Virus record (IMG/VR): IMGVR_UViG_3300037316_000032
Location: 1 to 64,000 of that record
Reading direction: 5' to 3' (one strand)
DNA: 64,000 nt
DNA from: a virus
Numbering within the stretch: the first letter of the stretch is position 1; each line of letters opens with the position of its first letter. A model generated the notes under the pieces. That model searched no databases. It had not been told where the DNA came from and worked only from the letters and a program-made list of their open reading frames with translations. A program made the position numbers and the translations under genes. Shown here one piece after another: positions 1,017-59,961 of this stretch.

Positions 1017-1199
1017 TCATCCTGCCCAGGTGAAAACGAAAAGGAGGGCGGCAAAGAGGTAGCAAACGCCGGCCCAGTTGCCGTGATCGTTGAGATCGAG
1101 GTAGTAGCCGAAGACCAGGCTGCCGACAAATAGCACGCACCAGAGGGCGACAAGGCACCCTATCCATAACTTGAATTTCCACGTCACTTCCTCGGTCAC
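1017..1199 (-). CDS. small two-helix membrane protein
   Basis: A 60-residue protein starting at a GTG that overlaps the TGA of the upstream regulator gene (GTGA), implying translational coupling. Two hydrophobic helices (about residues 11-31 and 41-59) are joined by a short polar loop (YYLDLNDHGNW). There is no signal peptide or enzymatic motif. It lies between the winged-helix gene and two small unknown genes. Role unknown; possibly an inner-membrane accessory or superinfection-exclusion-type protein, which is speculation. Confidence 0.6.
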   Translation of the reverse strand: MTEEVTWKFKLWIGCLVALWCVLFVGSLVFGYYLDLNDHGNWAGVCYLFAALLFVFTWAG

Positions 1200-1789
1200 G
1201 GCTTCTTCTCCGGGATGGCACCTGTAGCATATTCCCCGAGAAGTTCAAGTGCTTTCTTCCGATTTTCGGGCTTCATGAAGTAGCCACATCCCCACATGGT
1301 TTCGATCACGCCCATGAGCGGGGTCTTCTTCAAGCGCTTGCGCAGGTTGCAGATCACCACGTCGACCATCTTGGGGTCGGTCGGCTCGTCCTTGTCGGGA
1401 CCGCGCGACTGCTCTATGATTTGATGCATCATGTCTTTGGAAACCTCATTACGCCTGATCAGAACTGACAGTAATGAACCTTGCTGGCGTGTCACCTTGA
1501 ACAGGCGCACACAGTTGAACACGATATCCTCGTCGCCCATCTTGCGACCTTGCATGGGGTCGCGGGTGGCGCGCAGCGAATTGGGTGGCCAGTCCTCGCG
1601 GGGCATATCAACGATTTTACCCTCGCCCTTGGCCTCGTACAGCGCTTCACGAACCAGAGCGGACGGCGAGCGCAGCGCGCGTGCTATTGCATAGAGTGGC
1701 ACGCCTTCATCGGCAAGCCGCACCGCGATCGGCGCGAGATCGTATCGGAGCTTGGTGGGCGCCGGGGGCGCTGTGACTTCAGTGGACAT
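1196..1789 (-). CDS. OmpR/PhoB-type winged-helix DNA-binding protein
   Basis: Encodes 197 residues from the ATG at 1789 (GGCAGG ribosome site). The N-terminal part (about residues 18-58) looks like a small helix-turn-helix (LADEGVPLYAIARALRS). The C-terminal part (about 90-173) matches the trans_reg_C winged helix of response regulators: a recognition helix with VICNLRKRLKK (146-155) and the wing IETMWGCGYFM (162-172). There is no receiver domain and no phosphoacceptor Asp, so it is an orphan DNA-binding module. First gene of a four-gene operon. It is the clearest transcription-factor candidate in the window and could bind the repeated 15-bp palindrome, but nothing in the sequence proves that. 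Confidence 0.75.
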   Translation of the reverse strand: MSTEVTAPPAPTKLRYDLAPIAVRLADEGVPLYAIARALRSPSALVREALYEAKGEGKIVDMPREDWPPNSLRATRDPMQGRKMGDEDIVFNCVRLFKVTRQQGSLLSVLIRRNEVSKDMMHQIIEQSRGPDKDEPTDPKMVDVVICNLRKRLKKTPLMGVIETMWGCGYFMKPENRKKALELLGEYATGAIPEKKP

Positions 1790-1857: not shown

Positions 1858-2091
1858 TTAATGTATGTCGGTAGGGGCGGCGGCGCCGGACGGACCAGTC
1901 GGGCCTACACTGATAACAACCGGGACGCCGGTTGCGATCTGGTGCTGAACGAGTGCTGCGTTCAAGTCCCCCTTGGCCGTGTTGGCCACGGTGGCGACGG
2001 TGGACGCTAGGCTCGGGTTGCGCCGACCAACGAGTAGGCCGACCACAAACGCGATGGCAGAAACGATGATATATCCTGTGACTTCGAACAT
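1858..2091 (-). CDS. small membrane-anchored protein with collagen-like C-terminal tag
   Basis: A 77-residue protein with a good AGGAGAG ribosome site. One N-terminal transmembrane helix (about residues 5-22, GYIIVSAIAFVVGLLVG) is followed by RR and a polar region. The C-terminus ends in the collagen-like triplets GPTGPSG and a short tail. The tag resembles those on several other small proteins in this phage. No family is recognised. The topology suggests a membrane-bound protein with its C-terminus in the cytoplasm. Confidence 0.65.
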   Translation of the reverse strand: MFEVTGYIIVSAIAFVVGLLVGRRNPSLASTVATVANTAKGDLNAALVQHQIATGVPVVISVGPTGPSGAAAPTDIH

Positions 2092-2637: not shown

Positions 2638-3054
2638 TTTCGCCTGTCGCAGAAGTTTTTTTACGATACCCAGCAAAACCGGCACCAGGTCGAGCGGTCG
2701 CAAACCCGGATGGTCAAACTTGAACTGGAGGATCACGTTCTCCAGGTCGAACTCCAGCACGCGCAGAAGCGGCACCGGCTCGCGGAAGTGGAACACGTCC
2801 TCCTCCAACGGGGGCAAGGTGTCATGTTTCGACGTAAAATGGGGCCCAAAAGGCGTCGGCCCGAGCGCGTTGAACGGCCACGGCTTACCGGTCGGCGGCA
2901 AGTCGACGGGCAGTGGCTCGGGTGGCCTCGGCAGCGGGCGCAGAGGAGGCGCCTCCCGCATCTGGTTGGCTCGCCGGAGTTGGTCCAGCGTGCGCCGGCC
3001 GAATGGGATCACGTTGGTCCCGCGGCGATCATAGTAGTTTGTGTAGTTCGTCAT
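2623..3054 (-). CDS. hypothetical proline-rich protein
   Basis: A 143-residue protein with a basic N-terminus (YYDRRGTNVIPFGRRT), a Pro-rich linker (RPLPRPPEPLPVDLPP) and a hydrophobic C-terminal helical part. Its TAA stop is formed by the left arm of the palindrome at 2623-2637. It overlaps the stop of the upstream gene by four bases (start at 3054, upstream stop at 3051). No recognised domain. The Pro-rich linker suggests a structural or adaptor protein. Confidence 0.65.
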   Translation of the reverse strand: MTNYTNYYDRRGTNVIPFGRRTLDQLRRANQMREAPPLRPLPRPPEPLPVDLPPTGKPWPFNALGPTPFGPHFTSKHDTLPPLEEDVFHFREPVPLLRVLEFDLENVILQFKFDHPGLRPLDLVPVLLGIVKKLLRQAKLPSR

Positions 3055-3977
3055 GCTGGTCCTGTGTAGCCGGCAACATAGACCGACTTAAAACCCGCGG
3101 CGCCGGTGGGCCCCTGGTAGACAGTCTCTACCTCGCCGCCGTCATTGTCAAGTGATTGGTTGCCAAACCCAAAGGGTCCGGCTGGCCCCGTGGCTTGGAT
3201 GGTGACAGTACGGAACGTGTGGTCGCCCGCCACGGGAGATTGTATTCGGTAGCCCTTGGCACCTTTTATGGTGGCGGGTGGGGGCGGTGCAGCGGCGGGA
3301 ACCTGCAAGGCGTCGATCGTTGCAATGTCGCCGGCAGACGTATTACCAGCCGCCCAGACGTTCCACACCTGGCCGGTTTGAACAGCAGCCAAGGCCACGT
3401 ATTCAGACACCGTGCCTTCGTTGGACAACGAGTTGGACTGATACAAGCCGGTACAAGCCGGAGACACGTCGAAGCCGGCAGAGACAATCGGGTTGTCCGT
3501 AGTCTCGACGGCGAACACGAACGTATTCGGGGTCGTCGTAGAATAGGTCACATTATGGACTGTGCGGGCAGTATTGTTGACCTGAGTATGCGCCGGCAAC
3601 GAAACGTTTGGATCAAATGGATTGTTCAAGTCGCAGCCATTGACGCCGAAAGCCGTGAGGTTTTGATCCGTGACCGCACCAAAATTCGTGTATGACGCGA
3701 CGATATTTTTGGCCGACAGCGCGAGAGCAGCGTGCAACCACCACACCGAATGGATGAGCGGCAGACCGATGCTCGATAGCGTCTGGATATAACAGCGCTG
3801 CGTCATCGCAACGCCGTCGCACGTCACGCCCGAGACAGTCACACCGGCTTGGTTGGAATGAACGTCGACAATCGCAATGATGATATCGTCCGGGAGCGTC
3901 GTCGTCAGGACAGCCGTGGTGGTGCCAACAGCGTTGCTGACTGCATTGACTTTCCCGTCAAGGGTTGGCGCGGCCAT
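3051..3977 (-). CDS. putative virion/fibre protein with collagen-like segments
   Basis: Encodes 308 residues from the ATG at 3977, which overlaps the TAA stop of the Acb2-like gene (TAATG). The sequence is rich in Thr, Val and Asn and strongly predicted beta (for example VTVSGVTCDGVAMTQR). The C-terminal third carries Pro-rich and collagen-like pieces (ATGPAGPFGFG, YQGPTGAAG, and a terminal YTGPA). This looks like a surface or fibre-type protein, although it sits in the accessory cluster rather than among the structural genes. Exact role unknown. Confidence 0.65.
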   Translation of the reverse strand: MAAPTLDGKVNAVSNAVGTTTAVLTTTLPDDIIIAIVDVHSNQAGVTVSGVTCDGVAMTQRCYIQTLSSIGLPLIHSVWWLHAALALSAKNIVASYTNFGAVTDQNLTAFGVNGCDLNNPFDPNVSLPAHTQVNNTARTVHNVTYSTTTPNTFVFAVETTDNPIVSAGFDVSPACTGLYQSNSLSNEGTVSEYVALAAVQTGQVWNVWAAGNTSAGDIATIDALQVPAAAPPPPATIKGAKGYRIQSPVAGDHTFRTVTIQATGPAGPFGFGNQSLDNDGGEVETVYQGPTGAAGFKSVYVAGYTGPA

Positions 3978-4195
3978 TATCGTGGTGTCCCGTCTGGTTG
4001 TCGCGTGATCGCTATGTTTGCCCACATGGCATTAGACCTGTGCGCACGCAAGACGAACGTCTTGTCTGGGCCTTCCGGCAATAGGCGATCGAGTTCGCGG
4101 GCATACTCCGCGGCAGCCTGGCGTGCCTGCTCCATGCTGGCAAGCTGGTCGGTCGTCGGCTTCAGGTACTCGAAGGTCGATGGGTGCAGTGGCAT
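3977..4195 (-). CDS. Acb2/Tad1-like cyclic-nucleotide sponge (anti-CBASS/anti-Thoeris) candidate
   Basis: A 72-residue helical protein beginning MPLHPSTFEYLKPTTDQL with a GGAGAG ribosome site (the longer frame would need a TTG start). Features that match my memory of the Acb2/Tad1 hammerhead family in phages are the opening FEYLKPT, a long amphipathic helix (about 15-38), the GPDKTFVLR turn (42-50) and the C-terminal MWANIAITR (57-65). Family members sequester cyclic dinucleotides, cyclic trinucleotides or gcADPR and so blunt CBASS and Thoeris immunity. It follows directly after the tRNA-Pro gene and is coupled to the next gene by TAATG. The assignment is by motif only. Confidence 0.7.
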   Translation of the reverse strand: MPLHPSTFEYLKPTTDQLASMEQARQAAAEYARELDRLLPEGPDKTFVLRAHRSNAMWANIAITRQPDGTPR

Positions 4196-4209
4196 ATCAC
4201 TCTCCAAGT

Positions 4210-4286
4210 TGGTCGGGGCGGTAGGATTTGAACCTACGGCCTGCTGGTCCCAAACCAGCCGCTCTGCCAGGCTGAGCTACGCCCTG
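4210..4286 (-). tRNA. tRNA-Pro (anticodon TGG)
   Basis: The minus strand folds into a full cloverleaf of 77 nt: a 7-bp acceptor (one A-C mismatch at pair 2-71), a D-arm starting GCTCAGCC, an anticodon stem GCTGG/CCAGC with loop TTTGGGA giving anticodon TGG, a 5-nt variable loop, a T-arm GTAGG-TTCAAAT-CCTAC, discriminator A and an encoded CCA end. It sits exactly between the stop of the gene at 4287-4472 and the ribosome site of the Acb2-like gene, so it is probably processed from the same transcript. It could support translation of the Pro-rich collagen-like proteins. Confidence 0.95.
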
Positions 4287-9027: not shown

Positions 9028-9777
9028 ATGACCCAATCCACGATACCAAACGCATTGACGTTTGACGCTGTGAAAGCGTCAATGATAGAGCTTGGCGAAA
9101 TGGCCGGACAAGGCAAGGACACGCAAATCAAGGCGCTTATGAAAGTGTTGGAAGGTGCGTTCCACGGCAGCATTGATTTGCAGGCTGACAAGCACGGCAC
9201 TGATGTTGACGATTGCACAAAGCTGGCTGAAGCGTATGTGCAAGCTCAAAACAGCGCGACCGTGTTCGATGCCAAGGCAATGAACCAGCGCAAGCTGATC
9301 TCCACCTACCGGACCGTGACCAAACTAGGTCAATGGCCGAAAGGTGGCAACGGTGAACCGTTGGGAACGGCGAATAACCTGATCACCATGCGCCAGAAAA
9401 TGCGCGCCATCCCTGGTGAAATCAAGAAGCTGGATGATGCTGCCAACACGCTGCTGCGCTATGCACGCGCACAGCTCAAGCGTGACCAGCTCATTGACGA
9501 CAAGGAGCTGAAAACCTTCTGTTACAAGAAGGATAGCACGCTGCAAACGCCCAAGCAGATTATCGAAGGCGTGCGCAAGACACTCACAGCGTTGAAAGAT
9601 GGCAAGGCTGCGTCTGGTACGGCGCAGGATGCTTCCCAAGACATACGCGATGCTATTCGGAGCCTGACTGATCGGCTCAAGAAGATCGCGGACAAGCGTG
9701 GCGCTGCCAAAGCGCAGGCTGCGTTCAACGTGGTTGAGGATACGTCGATCCGTGCTTATCCGGTTAAGACCCAATAG
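9028..9777 (+). CDS. hypothetical early protein (249 aa)
   Basis: Strong ribosome site (AAGGAG) and ATG. The protein is almost entirely helical with many Lys/Asp/Gln heptads (IKALMKVLEGAFHGSIDL, MRQKMRAIPGEIKKLDD), consistent with an elongated or multimeric protein. No Walker, zinc or nuclease motif is visible. It is the largest product of the early small-gene train and lies directly before a zinc-finger-like gene. Function unknown. Confidence 0.7.
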   Translation: MTQSTIPNALTFDAVKASMIELGEMAGQGKDTQIKALMKVLEGAFHGSIDLQADKHGTDVDDCTKLAEAYVQAQNSATVFDAKAMNQRKLISTYRTVTKLGQWPKGGNGEPLGTANNLITMRQKMRAIPGEIKKLDDAANTLLRYARAQLKRDQLIDDKELKTFCYKKDSTLQTPKQIIEGVRKTLTALKDGKAASGTAQDASQDIRDAIRSLTDRLKKIADKRGAAKAQAAFNVVEDTSIRAYPVKTQ

Positions 9778-12009: not shown

Positions 12010-12348
12010 ATGGACGTTACAAGGTTTCGGTCGTTTGCCGAGCGATACGTGATCGAGCGAGCAAGCACGTTTAAGAATGACACCGAAATGCAGGACGCTT
12101 GGAGCGCAGTAGAGCGAGCCAAGTCGATCTATAAGCATATCGAGAATGTGGCCAACGTAGAGAACGACAAGGATATGCGGGAAGAACACGCCACGCGCTC
12201 ACAGGGTATGCAGGCAACGCAAGGCCCACCGGGCGCTACTGGCATGACAGGGCCGAGCCAAACTATTGCGCGACACCCCATAGGCACCCGCGTTTTGGCG
12301 CCGCCCGCTAACAATTCACAAAGCTGGACAAGAAGGAACTCACCGTGA
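12010..12348 (+). CDS. hypothetical protein with internal collagen-like segment
   Basis: The ATG at 12010 has a CAGGAG ribosome site. The N-terminal 65 residues are helical (RFRSFAERYVIERASTFKND). A short collagen-like stretch (QGPPGATGMTGPS, about 75-87) precedes a polar tail. It ends in a GTGA overlap with the VWA-like gene. A collagen-like insert in an early gene is unusual because the others are in late or accessory genes. Confidence 0.55.
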   Translation: MDVTRFRSFAERYVIERASTFKNDTEMQDAWSAVERAKSIYKHIENVANVENDKDMREEHATRSQGMQATQGPPGATGMTGPSQTIARHPIGTRVLAPPANNSQSWTRRNSP

Positions 12349-17446: not shown

Positions 17447-17689
17447 ATGCCCTACATCAAACAGGATCGTCGCATCCCTCTGACGATAGCCTGCCCGCTA
17501 ACTCCTGGCGAGTTGAACTATGCGTTTACCCGCATGGCGCTTGGGTACATCGAGCGGCACGGCAAGGACTATCAGCATATCAGTGAAGTGATTGGCGCGT
17601 TTGAATGTGCCAAGCTGGAGTTCTACCGCAGGCTGGCCGCGCCCTACGAGGACAAAAAGATCGCTGAGAATGGGGACGTATTTCCATGA
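17447..17689 (+). CDS. conserved phage protein (80 aa, MPYIKQ family)
   Basis: Begins MPYIKQDRRIPL, one base after the polymerase stop, and contains the segment HISEVIGAFECAKLEFYRR followed by PYEDKKIAENGDV. I recall this pattern as a widespread phage protein (DUF6899-like) usually found near replication genes, with no proven role. Mostly helical. It ends in an ATGA overlap. Confidence 0.75.
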   Translation: MPYIKQDRRIPLTIACPLTPGELNYAFTRMALGYIERHGKDYQHISEVIGAFECAKLEFYRRLAAPYEDKKIAENGDVFP

Positions 17690-18363
17690 ACGCCGGTCAT
17701 AGGTCCACACGCGGAGGCACAGTTGCCCGCCGAAAGTGGCTCTTAAAATATCCCGAGGCAAAGGTGCTTAATTCAGCACGTTCAAGCGCGTGGTATTATG
17801 ATCGAGAGTTCTCGCTAAAGCAGAGCGATATTGTCATTCCGCCTACTTGCCCGGTGCTTGGTATTCCCTTATTTTTTACTCCTGGACGGAGGACAGCCAA
17901 CACCCCGTCGCTGGATAGGCTGGACAATTCAAAGGGATATACCAAAGACAATGTTGCAGTTGTGAGTTGGCGTGCTAACGACGCCAAGGGGGACTTGTCC
18001 CTACCTGAGCTAAAAAAGTTGGCGGCATTTTATTTGCCGGTACAGCATCCCCGCTTGTACTTGGCCGGGCCAATGAGGGGATATAAGGACTACAATTTTC
18101 CTGCCTTTGACTACGCAGCAAAGCTGTTACGCGCAGAGGGCTACTTTGTTTTTTCCCCCGCTGACAACGATAGGGCGAAGGGTCGTAAGGACCCACCAAT
18201 CCGAGACTGTCTGCTTGACGACACACACTGGATATGTAAACATGCTGATGTAGTCGCGCTTTTACCCGGTTGGGAAAAGAGTACCGGGGCACAAGCGGAA
18301 CGGTCCCTTGCCCTTGCACTAGGTTTATCTGTCACAATCTTAGGAAGGAAATACTATGTCTAA
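17686..18363 (+). CDS. fusion of HNH-like endonuclease domain and DUF4406 (deoxyribosyltransferase-like) domain
   Basis: A single 225-residue frame joins two modules. Residues about 20-118 match the phage nuclease type with ending TCPVLGIPLF, SLDRLDNSKGYTKDNV and VVSWRANDAKGD. Residues about 124-225 match DUF4406: RLYLAGPMRGYKDYNFPAF, then DTHWICKHADVVALLPGWE and GAQAERSLALALG, a fold related to nucleoside 2-deoxyribosyltransferases. The two are normally separate proteins in my recollection. It starts by ATGA overlap and runs into the dATP/dGTP pyrophosphohydrolase-like gene, so a link to nucleotide metabolism is plausible. Confidence 0.75.
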   Translation: MNAGHRSTRGGTVARRKWLLKYPEAKVLNSARSSAWYYDREFSLKQSDIVIPPTCPVLGIPLFFTPGRRTANTPSLDRLDNSKGYTKDNVAVVSWRANDAKGDLSLPELKKLAAFYLPVQHPRLYLAGPMRGYKDYNFPAFDYAAKLLRAEGYFVFSPADNDRAKGRKDPPIRDCLLDDTHWICKHADVVALLPGWEKSTGAQAERSLALALGLSVTILGRKYYV

Positions 18364-18733
18364 GTCCACCCCATCGCGCGCGCGTTCTTTAAAATCCGCC
18401 GCCGCGCCGCTGCCGACCGATAGCGCCGCCCGCAAACGCATACCCATCGTCACCGGCGTACTGGATTATTTCCCTGATGCCGTGGCGGCTGTCGCTGAGG
18501 TTTCGTTTGTCGGTAACGAGAAGCACAACCCCGGCCAGCCGCTGCATTGGTCCCGCGACAAGTCGCCCGACCACGCCGACTGTATCGGACGGCACCTGTT
18601 GGAACGCGGCACGTTGGACCCTGGGACGAAGGTTCGCCACAGCGCCCAACTTGCATGGCGCGCACTTGCATTGTTGCAAATCGAAATCGAAGCCGAGCGA
18701 GCTGCCGTTATGGGGTCTGAACGCAAGATTTGA
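18356..18733 (+). CDS. dATP/dGTP diphosphohydrolase-type protein (DUF5664-like)
   Basis: Ribosome site AAGGAAG; overlaps the end of the fusion gene by eight bases. After a basic start, residues about 27-115 contain RIPIVTGVLDYFPDAV, VSFVGNEKHNPGQP, SPDHADCIGRHLLERG and a final helical HSAQLAWRALALLQIEIE. This matches my memory of the family formerly DUF5664, annotated as the N-terminal domain of phage dATP/dGTP diphosphohydrolases. It would lower specific dNTP pools. No PurZ-like gene is seen here, so a modified-base genome is not indicated. Confidence 0.65.
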   Translation: MSKSTPSRARSLKSAAAPLPTDSAARKRIPIVTGVLDYFPDAVAAVAEVSFVGNEKHNPGQPLHWSRDKSPDHADCIGRHLLERGTLDPGTKVRHSAQLAWRALALLQIEIEAERAAVMGSERKI

Positions 18734-49129: not shown

Positions 49130-49630
49130 TTACGTACCGAGCGTTCCAGATTTGATCAGGTCATTGATCAGACCCATAATGGTTTGCGCGCATTGCTGCG
49201 TCGTCGCGGTGGATGTATCCAACGTCGCGCGATTGATTACACCAGTCCAATTATGCCAGCCAGTTTGTGGCCCAGTAGGACCGCTAGAACGACCTGTCGG
49301 GCCCGTGGCGCCCGTGTTACCTGTACCCGGCCCAGTTGGGCCTGTTACACCGGCAGCGCCAGCAATCCCGGTATCACCAGCAACGCCAGGTGATCCGTCA
49401 GTACCCGCGGGACCAGTGGGACCTGGCGTACCGGTTGGACCTTGGGCGCCGGTCGTCCCCGTGGCCCCGCCGCCCGTTGGCCCCGTGCCAAACGGACCGG
49501 TCGGACCGGTTGGGCCAGGGCCAGTCGGGCCAGTGCTACCAGTCGGGCCTCCAGCAGGCCCGGTTGGGCCGCCAAGCAAGATGATCGGCAGAGCCGAGAC
49601 AGGTGATGGTGAAACATCGGTGACTGGCAT
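49130..49630 (-). CDS. collagen-like protein (166 aa)
   Basis: After a short N-terminal segment ([11 protein letters not shown]), about 100 residues are Gly-X-Y triplets, mostly Gly-Pro-Thr, Gly-Ala-Thr and Gly-Pro-Gly. The C-terminal 45 residues ([17 protein letters not shown]) form a small helical domain that could trimerise. Typical of a short fibre or decoration protein. Confidence 0.75.
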
Positions 49631-58485: not shown

Positions 58486-59136
58486 TCATCCTTGCGAAAC
58501 ACGCAAGGCCCCTGTTGCACCTGCCGCGGCGAATGTTCCGGTGGCGCTATAAACTGCGCCAACCACATGCGGATCATTGGTCGGTGGCGTGTACGAAGTG
58601 TTGAGGACTGGGCCAGCCGGGCCTTGATATCCGGTAGGTCCGGTTGCACCGGTCGCGCCGAGTGCGCCGTTCGCGCCAGTCACGCCGATACCGCCTGCGG
58701 GACCAGAAGGACCAGAAGGACCAGTAACTCCCGTGGCTGCGGCTGGACCAGTAACACCAACAGCACCGTATGGCCCCTGATCTGGCCCTATAGCGCCGGT
58801 TGGACCAGACGGCCCAGTAGTACCAGTCGCGCCAGTATTGCCAACTGCACCAGCCGGGCCTGGATAGCCAACGTTTCCGGTAGGACCAGTAGGGCCAGCC
58901 GGTAAAGCGTTCGGCCCTTGCGGACCCGCAGTGCCGGCCGGGCCGGTAAAGCCTGTCGTGCCAGCCGGGCCAGTGGCGCCGGTTGCCGCACCAGTAGGAC
59001 CAGTGGCCCCAGGCGGACCTTGAAGGCCCGAAGGGCCCTGAATGGCATCAACGACTTGTTTCAGGACCGACCCTTCGATGTTGTCATCATAAGTGTCGAG
59101 AGCGCCCAGCGGGCCGGGGCTTGGAATGTTCGCCAT
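58486..59136 (-). CDS. collagen-like protein (216 aa), paralogue 1
   Basis: An N-terminal anchor domain (YDDNIEGSVLKQVVDAIQG) leads into about 110 residues of Gly-X-Y repeats and a C-terminal beta segment with PPTNDPHVVGAVY. The same anchor and C-terminal motifs occur in the paralogue at 59149-59751. It shares the leader AGGGGTTTG before the ATG. Probably a trimeric fibre or whisker protein. Next to the glycan module. Confidence 0.75.
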   Translation of the reverse strand: MANIPSPGPLGALDTYDDNIEGSVLKQVVDAIQGPSGLQGPPGATGPTGAATGATGPAGTTGFTGPAGTAGPQGPNALPAGPTGPTGNVGYPGPAGAVGNTGATGTTGPSGPTGAIGPDQGPYGAVGVTGPAAATGVTGPSGPSGPAGGIGVTGANGALGATGATGPTGYQGPAGPVLNTSYTPPTNDPHVVGAVYSATGTFAAAGATGALRVSQG

Positions 59137-59148
59137 GTCAAACCCCTA

Positions 59149-59751
59149 TTATGGACCGCCTGAAATTGTCAGCACGCCGCCGTTGCTCCAGACCTGGCCA
59201 GTGACGCCAGGATTGGAAGTCGGCGGAATGAACAAGGCGGGATTGTTACCTGTCGGGCCTGTTATGCCTTGGGCACCGTTATTACCTTGAGCGCCGGCAG
59301 CACCAGCGTTACCTTGCGGGCCAGTTGGACCAGCAGGGCCAGTGACGCCAGTCGGGCCGGCTGGGCCGGTTGCGGCACCAGTAGGACCGGTCGCACCTTG
59401 CAGACCTGTTACGCCGCTCGATTGACCAGCAGGGCCTTGTGGACCCTGGACACCTGCATAACCTTGCGCGCCAACCGGACCTTGCGGACCTGTGGCACCA
59501 GTGGCGCTAGTGGCACCAGCGGGACCACCTGGGCCTGTTGGGCCAACGGCGGGGCCAGTGGCACCAGTCACACCAGTCGGACCAGTCGAACCTGTGGAGG
59601 CGCCGGCTGCGCCAGTCGGGCCGGCTGAACCTGTCGGGCCAGCAGCGCCAGTCACGCCACCGGTGGGACCTGCATTGATAAAGTCCACGACCTGTTTCAG
59701 AACAGGACCAATTTGGTTGCGATCATAATTGTTTGAGGACAAGATCGTCAT
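59149..59751 (-). CDS. collagen-like protein (200 aa), paralogue 2
   Basis: Anchor ([20 protein letters not shown]), about 120 residues of Gly-X-Y triplets rich in Gly-Pro-Thr, Gly-Ala-Thr and Gly-Pro-Gln, and a C-terminal motif [17 protein letters not shown]. The leader before the ATG is the same AATAGGGGTTTG as in paralogue 1, so a duplication is likely. Confidence 0.75.
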
Positions 59752-59763
59752 GGCAAACCCCTA

Positions 59764-59961
59764 TTACGGTCCTGTCGGACCAGTTGCACCCGCCGTACCA
59801 GTCGGGCCAGCAGGCCCCGTTGGTCCACCCGCACCAGCATCGGCGTTCAAGATGAGAACAATGTCTCGAAGGATCGAGCCAATCGCGTTTACGTCCGGCC
59901 GTTCCGGAACAGGAAGCGGAAGGGTCGGCATATAGTTCGGATCGGTTGCGCCTGTCGGCAT
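59764..59961 (-). CDS. short collagen-like protein (65 aa), paralogue 3
   Basis: The ATG at 59961 has a GGAG site. The anchor (VNAIGSILRDIVLILNADAG) is followed by only about 20 residues of Gly-X-Y ([13 protein letters not shown]) and no C-terminal head. It looks like a trimmed version of paralogues 1 and 2, either a functional short whisker base or a degraded copy. Confidence 0.6.
   Translation of the reverse strand: MPTGATDPNYMPTLPLPVPERPDVNAIGSILRDIVLILNADAGAGGPTGPAGPTGTAGATGPTGP

What the first reader, a model, noticed from the sequence alone, without database searches (positions are those of the whole stretch)
3977..4195. Likely Acb2/Tad1-type anti-defence protein next to a tRNA gene
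The 72-residue product has the FEYLKPT opening, the GPDKTFVLR turn and the MWANIAIT end of the Acb2/Tad1 hammerhead group as I remember it. Established knowledge: such proteins sequester cyclic oligonucleotides or gcADPR and block CBASS or Thoeris. If right, this phage is adapted to hosts with nucleotide-signalling immunity, and the surrounding leftward cluster may hold more anti-defence genes.
Basis: partly seen in the sequence, partly recalled or inferred. Interest (0 to 1): 0.62.

Follow-up and report, generated by a model that had tools for sequence, protein, structure and literature searches.

The report
Short Acb2-like phage nucleotide sponge
A soil phage, probably of alphaproteobacteria, carries a tiny gene from the family of proteins that mop up bacterial alarm molecules; the family membership is solid, the molecule it binds is unknown, and it belongs to a large, so far unstudied branch whose pocket residues differ from the characterised proteins.

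Summary
The 72-aa ORF at 3977-4195 (-) is real and under selection. It matches Pfam PF24729 (Acb2/Tad1 hairpin domain) above the curated cut-off, and all 19 representatives of its family match too. With a 32-sequence alignment AlphaFold2 gives a confident model (pLDDT 93): one short N-terminal helix plus two long antiparallel helices, the layout described for Acb2, without the N-terminal beta-sheet of Tad1. A profile comparison joins it (97%, E 9e-11) to short 'GREK' homologues of actinophages, which match a PDB chain named 'Acb2 homolog 43'. Ligand binding and anti-defence activity are inferred, not shown. Of five T4 Vs.4 residues that touch cGAMP, Tyr8 and Lys23 have counterparts (Tyr10, Arg25, nearly invariant), while His11, Arg79 and Phe82 do not (Pro, Ile, Thr). 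Most of the clade, this protein included, has also replaced the common KLxE face of the last helix by HRSN. The ligand range may therefore differ. The tRNA-Pro neighbour is incidental (absent near the relatives), and no second anti-defence gene was found around it. It is a new, uncharacterised branch of a known sponge family.

The parts
3977..4195 (-). 72-aa Acb2-like hairpin (nucleotide sponge) gene
   Evidence: PF24729 E 6.3e-7 over the curated cut-off; predicted fold pLDDT 93, helices 6-10, 15-38, 43-64; 84 viral relatives
4202..4205 (-). GGAG Shine-Dalgarno sequence of the sponge gene
   Evidence: read directly; most relatives carry a similar GGAG/AGGA at a similar distance
4210..4286 (-). 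tRNA-Pro(TGG) with encoded CCA, ending 14 nt before the sponge ATG; probably on the same transcript, not part of the function
   Evidence: not conserved next to relatives
3051..3977 (-). 308-aa gene with collagen-like C-terminus, start overlapping the sponge stop (TAATG); probably co-transcribed, likely virion protein
   Evidence: no Pfam or PHROG match

Best explanation
The gene encodes a minimal (72-aa) Acb2-type sponge. Each chain is a helical hairpin with a short N-terminal helix. By analogy with T4 Vs.4 and PaMx33 Acb2, the chains would assemble into a compact hexamer whose pockets between subunits hold cyclic nucleotide signals. Made during infection, it would bind and hold the second messenger of a host CBASS-like system so that the effector is not triggered. 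Shown here: the gene, family, fold and purifying selection. Inferred: hexamer, binding, anti-defence action. The ligand is open. Tyr10 and Arg25 could stack on a base and hold a phosphate as Tyr8/Lys23 do in T4, and the invariant GPDKT at the hairpin tip lies where GREK (short Acb2 homologues) and REN (Tad1) lie.
For: PF24729 over its cut-off for the window protein and matched by all 19 family representatives; PHROG 1454 E 1e-10. hhalign of the family against the short GREK homologues gives 97.2%, E 8.8e-11, against at most 0.6% in 50 column-shuffled controls. The GREK homologues match PF24729 at 53-76 bits and the PDB chain 9ptq_A 'Acb2 homolog 43'. AlphaFold2 pLDDT 93 with the three-helix Acb2 layout (layout described in PMC10419184). 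The best BFVD fold matches are Acb2/Tad1 hairpin proteins, Foldseek probability 0.94-1.00. Tyr10 in 97% and Arg25 in 99% of 67 unique sequences, in the alignment columns of Vs.4 Tyr8 and Lys23, which contact cGAMP (PMC10097602). The gene recurs in unrelated phage contexts with almost no shared neighbours, as expected of an accessory anti-defence gene. CD-NTase (SMODS) genes occur in 11 of 150 genomes of the order of a Rhizobiales isolate that carries a homologue.
Against: Vs.4 His11, Arg79 and Phe82 correspond to Pro13, Ile61 and Thr64; F82A costs Vs.4 more than 25-fold in binding (PMC10097602). Direct profile comparison with the T4/PaMx33 Acb2 group is weak (36%, E 4e-4; 4% with the larger alignment), and so is the PDB fold search (Vs.4 TM 0.6 but E 5.6, among other hairpins). 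Hexamer and ligand could not be modelled. Relatives were found through exact peptide patterns, so conservation is somewhat overestimated.
Confidence: 0.77

Rival explanations
1. It is a sponge of the same fold, but for a different signal than Acb2 takes: for example only a cyclic trinucleotide at the hairpin tip, or a Thoeris or type III CRISPR signal, so that it is not an anti-CBASS protein in the strict sense.
For: Arg79 and Phe82 positions are lost; 60 of 66 rows form a clade in which the common KLxEV face of the last helix has become HRSN, while the two rows outside all others keep KLREV (tree). The tip motif GPDKT and R50, R53, R65 are invariant in the set. Acb2 homologues are reported to differ in ligand range (PMC12043709).
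Against: Tyr10 and Arg25, counterparts of the CDN-site residues, are kept. No direct data on any ligand.
Confidence: 0.3
2. The Acb2/Tad1 hairpin here has a non-immune job, such as binding a phage or host nucleotide, or acting as a small virion or assembly protein.
For: In the window the next gene, overlapping by TAATG, encodes a collagen-repeat protein of the likely virion set; in some relatives the gene lies beside terminase or portal genes.
Against: Relatives also lie in replication regions and next to glycosyltransferases, the position is not kept, and the related Rhizobium phage RHph_TM27A lacks any PF24729 gene, so it is dispensable.
Confidence: 0.12
3. It is a Tad1 protein acting on Thoeris through gcADPR.
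For: Shared hairpin domain; MWxN near the end also occurs in Tad1.
Against: No N-terminal beta-sheet domain: the whole protein is 72 aa, the Tad1 chains in the PDB are 123-138 aa.
Confidence: 0.05

Closest known systems
Short 'GREK' Acb2 homologues of actinophages and others (e.g. Mycobacterium phage Farewell gp93; PDB 9ptq 'Acb2 homolog 43')
   Same: Same length class, same PF24729 domain, same ...R...LPxG-xx-K...W-AN-AI-R frame; hhalign 97%, E 8.8e-11
   Different: GPDKT instead of GREK at the hairpin tip; HRSN instead of KLEE on the last helix; about 26-42% identity
Acb2 / Vs.4 of phage T4 (PDB 7uq2)
   Same: Short N-terminal helix plus hairpin; Tyr8 and Lys23 of the cGAMP pocket correspond to Tyr10 and Arg25; T12 helix cap corresponds to T14; MW motif
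   Different: About 17 residues shorter in the hairpin; His11, Ser74, Arg79, Phe82 not kept; 16% identity in the alignment
Acb2 of Pseudomonas phages (PaMx33/PaP2 p26; PDB 8h2j, 8ixz)
   Same: Tyr11 and Lys26 at the same columns; also lacks the Phe82 aromatic
   Different: Longer hairpin (92-94 aa); no GPDKT tip
Tad1 (PDB 7uav, 8kbb)
   Same: Hairpin domain of PF24729, MWxN near the end
   Different: Tad1 has an N-terminal beta-sheet domain and is 123-138 aa; this protein is the hairpin alone

Membership tests
Acb2/Tad1 hairpin superfamily (PF24729) | Match to the curated profile above its gathering score | tested here: met
   29.9 bits against 27; all 19 representatives match
Acb2/Tad1 hairpin superfamily (PF24729) | Two long antiparallel helices | tested here: met
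   predicted helices 15-38 and 43-64, pLDDT 93; BFVD matches
Acb2 (T4 Vs.4 type) | One short N-terminal helix before the hairpin, no other domain | tested here: met
   predicted helix 6-10
Acb2 (T4 Vs.4 type) | Aromatic and basic pocket residues Tyr8 and Lys23 | tested here: met
   Tyr10 97%, Arg25 99% of 67 sequences
Acb2 (T4 Vs.4 type) | His11, Arg79, Phe82 contacts to cGAMP (not universal in Acb2: the Pseudomonas Acb2 also lacks His11 and Phe82) | tested here: not met
   Pro13, Ile61, Thr64
Acb2 (T4 Vs.4 type) | Solved structure of a close sequence relative or a significant PDB fold match | tested here: inconclusive
   no direct sequence hit; fold match E 5.6; link through GREK homologues to 9ptq
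Acb2 (T4 Vs.4 type) | Homohexamer | not testable with these tools
   only monomers can be predicted
Acb2 (T4 Vs.4 type) | Binds cyclic oligonucleotides and blocks CBASS | not testable with these tools
   needs a binding assay and an infection assay
Tad1 | N-terminal beta-sheet domain before the helices | tested here: not met
   72 aa, no beta-sheet in the model
Tad1 | Binds gcADPR | not testable with these tools
   needs a binding assay

The most novel reading that the evidence does not exclude
The GPDKT/HRSN clade is a separate lineage of minimal sponges whose pockets were rebuilt to hold a signal that known Acb2 and Tad1 proteins do not take, revealing a nucleotide-signalling defence common in soil alphaproteobacteria.
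Probability: 0.2. Interest if true: 0.65.

Novelty: new variant of a known kind. Interest (0 to 1): 0.38.

Why it matters
It confirms a family call made by eye and defines a clade of at least 66 distinct sponge sequences in environmental viruses that tblastn with the window protein (E 1e-3) did not find in 50,697 phage records. The clade keeps the Acb2 fold in 72 residues while replacing several characterised ligand contacts. It is a compact natural test of which residues set the ligand range of viral sponges, and may point to signals used by soil bacteria.

Tried and rejected
Direct sequence search of the PDB: only chance hits. tblastn against phages and plasmids with the window protein: nothing; a divergent relative (L077) reached actinophages at E 3e-6, which gave the bridge to Acb2. 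Single-sequence structure prediction: poor (pLDDT 63), replaced by the alignment-based model. PDB fold search: inconclusive, small hairpins match many things. tRNA linkage as a clue: rejected. Anti-defence island: PADLOC, Pfam and PHROG on neighbours gave nothing. NCBIfam: no match. First dN/dS script failed on a wrong pattern, corrected. Paper for PDB 9ptq: not found.

Full report
Observation. The ORF is at 3977-4195 on the minus strand, 72 aa, starting with ATG preceded by GGAG at 4205-4202. An upstream in-frame TTG at 4207 exists, but most relatives start at M-(x)-(L)-H, which supports the ATG. The stop TAA overlaps the ATG of the next gene (TAATG). ARAGORN and Rfam both find tRNA-Pro(TGG) at 4210-4286 (-); its encoded CCA ends 14 nt before the sponge ATG.

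Family. The window protein matches Pfam PF24729 (Acb2/Tad1 hairpin) at E 6.3e-7, 29.9 bits, cut-off 27, and PHROG 1454 at 1.3e-10. It is the only PF24729 match in the 66,558-base virus record. An IMG/VR scan found 84 stretches encoding relatives; the best 80 were fetched, at 54-77% identity. All 19 representatives match PF24729, best 9.2e-11. tblastn at E 1e-3 and 1e-2 respectively finds no relative in 50,697 phage records or in PLSDB plasmids. Searching with the divergent relative L077 reaches actinophage proteins (Mycobacterium phage Farewell gp93, Gordonia phage Hanem gp24). These and similar ones score 53-76 bits against PF24729. The Farewell protein hits PDB chain 9ptq_A, 'Acb2 homolog 43', at 1.5e-4, and a four-sequence profile hits it at 6.3e-7. 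A profile of the window family against a profile of 80 such homologues gives 97.2%, E 8.8e-11; 50 column-shuffled controls reach at most 0.6%. Directly against the T4/Pseudomonas Acb2 group the link is weak (36.5%, E 3.7e-4; 3.7%, E 0.0037 with the larger alignment), so the bridge matters.

Fold. AlphaFold2 on 32 sequences gives pLDDT 93, pTM 0.73, helices 6-10, 15-38 and 43-64. [quoted passage not shown]). The architecture is Acb2-like. In BFVD nearly all of the best 16 matches are named Acb2/Tad1 hairpin proteins, probability 0.94-1.00, best E 0.005; those names probably rest on Pfam. In the PDB T4 Vs.4 appears with TM 0.6 but E 5.6, among unrelated hairpins: inconclusive alone.

Pocket. In T4 Vs.4, Tyr8 and Phe82 stack on the bases of cGAMP; Tyr8, His11, Lys23 and Arg79 make polar contacts; Leu29, Ala66, Ala73 and Ala77 form the hexamer interface (PMC10097602). 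In the MAFFT alignment Tyr8 falls on Tyr10, Lys23 on Arg25, Thr12 on Thr14, Met75-Trp76 on Met57-Trp58; His11 falls on Pro13, Arg79 on Ile61, Phe82 on Thr64, Ser74 on Ala56. Across 67 unique sequences Tyr10 is 97% and Arg25 99%; Gln17, Pro40, Gly42-Thr46 (GPDKT), Arg50, Arg53, Met57, Trp58 and Arg65 are invariant. The search used exact peptides from the query, and my extraction pattern required T7, DKT and [DN]G, so the invariance of those positions is partly imposed. GPDKT at the tip aligns with GREK of the short homologues and with REN of Tad1. My recollection that this tip carries the cyclic-trinucleotide site in Pseudomonas Acb2 (Arg67) was not checked in a paper here.

A change inside the clade. 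In the tree (few columns, rough support) the two rows outside all others (L075, L077) keep KLREV before MW, as in the short homologues (KLEE) and Tad1 (KLQE). Next come LRTV forms. A 60-row group (97/88), which includes the window, has HRSN or HRTT. This is a rebuilt helix face next to the pocket and the main reason to call it a variant. The tree is midpoint-rooted with a long outgroup branch, so the direction of change is likely, not proven.

Selection and context. Median dN/dS is 0.23 (138 pairs with dS below 1.2). Neighbours of the window gene have almost no homologues beside the relatives. Among relatives the gene lies in replication regions, near portal or terminase, or near glycosyltransferases (functions of these neighbours read from their sequences, not searched): an accessory gene that moves. 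None of 60 related loci has a tRNA-Pro; the few tRNAs seen are Met, Gln or Ser. PADLOC, Pfam and PHROG on window neighbours give no second defence-related gene.

Phage and host. The window is most of a 66.6-kb tailed-phage record with a 756-aa portal-like protein 58.5% identical over 79% of its length to that of Rhizobium phage RHph_TM27A, which has no PF24729 gene. A homologue lies on a phage-like contig of a Rhizobiales isolate. An alphaproteobacterial host is likely. In 150 genomes of that isolate's order, 11 carry a SMODS nucleotidyltransferase over the cut-off and 8 a PF24729 protein.

Mechanism. Most likely the protein forms a small oligomer that holds a cyclic nucleotide alarm signal, as Acb2 does. 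Family, fold and selection are shown; oligomer, ligand and effect are inferred. Whether the ligand is a CBASS cyclic dinucleotide is left open, because three of the five T4 contacts are missing; the Pseudomonas Acb2, which binds cGAMP (PMC10419184), also lacks two of these (His11, Phe82), so their absence does not exclude it.

Noticed in passing
window 4195-4286 (-): The tRNA-Pro carries its own CCA and ends only 14 nt before the sponge start codon, with the Shine-Dalgarno sequence between; tRNA 3' processing would leave a very short leader on the sponge mRNA.
   Followed up: partly
window 1858-2091, 2215-2565, 3051-3977, 12010-12348, 49130-49630, 58486-59136, 59149-59751, 59764-59961: Many short proteins carry collagen-like GPT/GAT repeats, including one small protein with an N-terminal membrane-like segment (1858-2091).
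   Followed up: no
window 1196-1789 (-): Winged-helix protein (Pfam Trans_reg_C, E 1e-7) without a receiver domain in a phage.
   Followed up: no
window 18356-18733 (+) and 17686-18363 (+): A protein with the dATP/dGTP diphosphohydrolase N-terminal domain (PF18909, 3e-11) next to a DUF4406 protein: possible nucleotide-pool or modified-base genes.
   Followed up: no
window 9028-9777 (+): 249-aa protein with a sub-threshold match to Effector-associated domain 4 (E 0.004), probably chance.
   Followed up: no
L062 5001-5234 and 5256-6749: In a phage with a related portal (59%) the sponge gene lies just upstream of a likely terminase large-subunit gene, a different place from that in the window.
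   Followed up: partly
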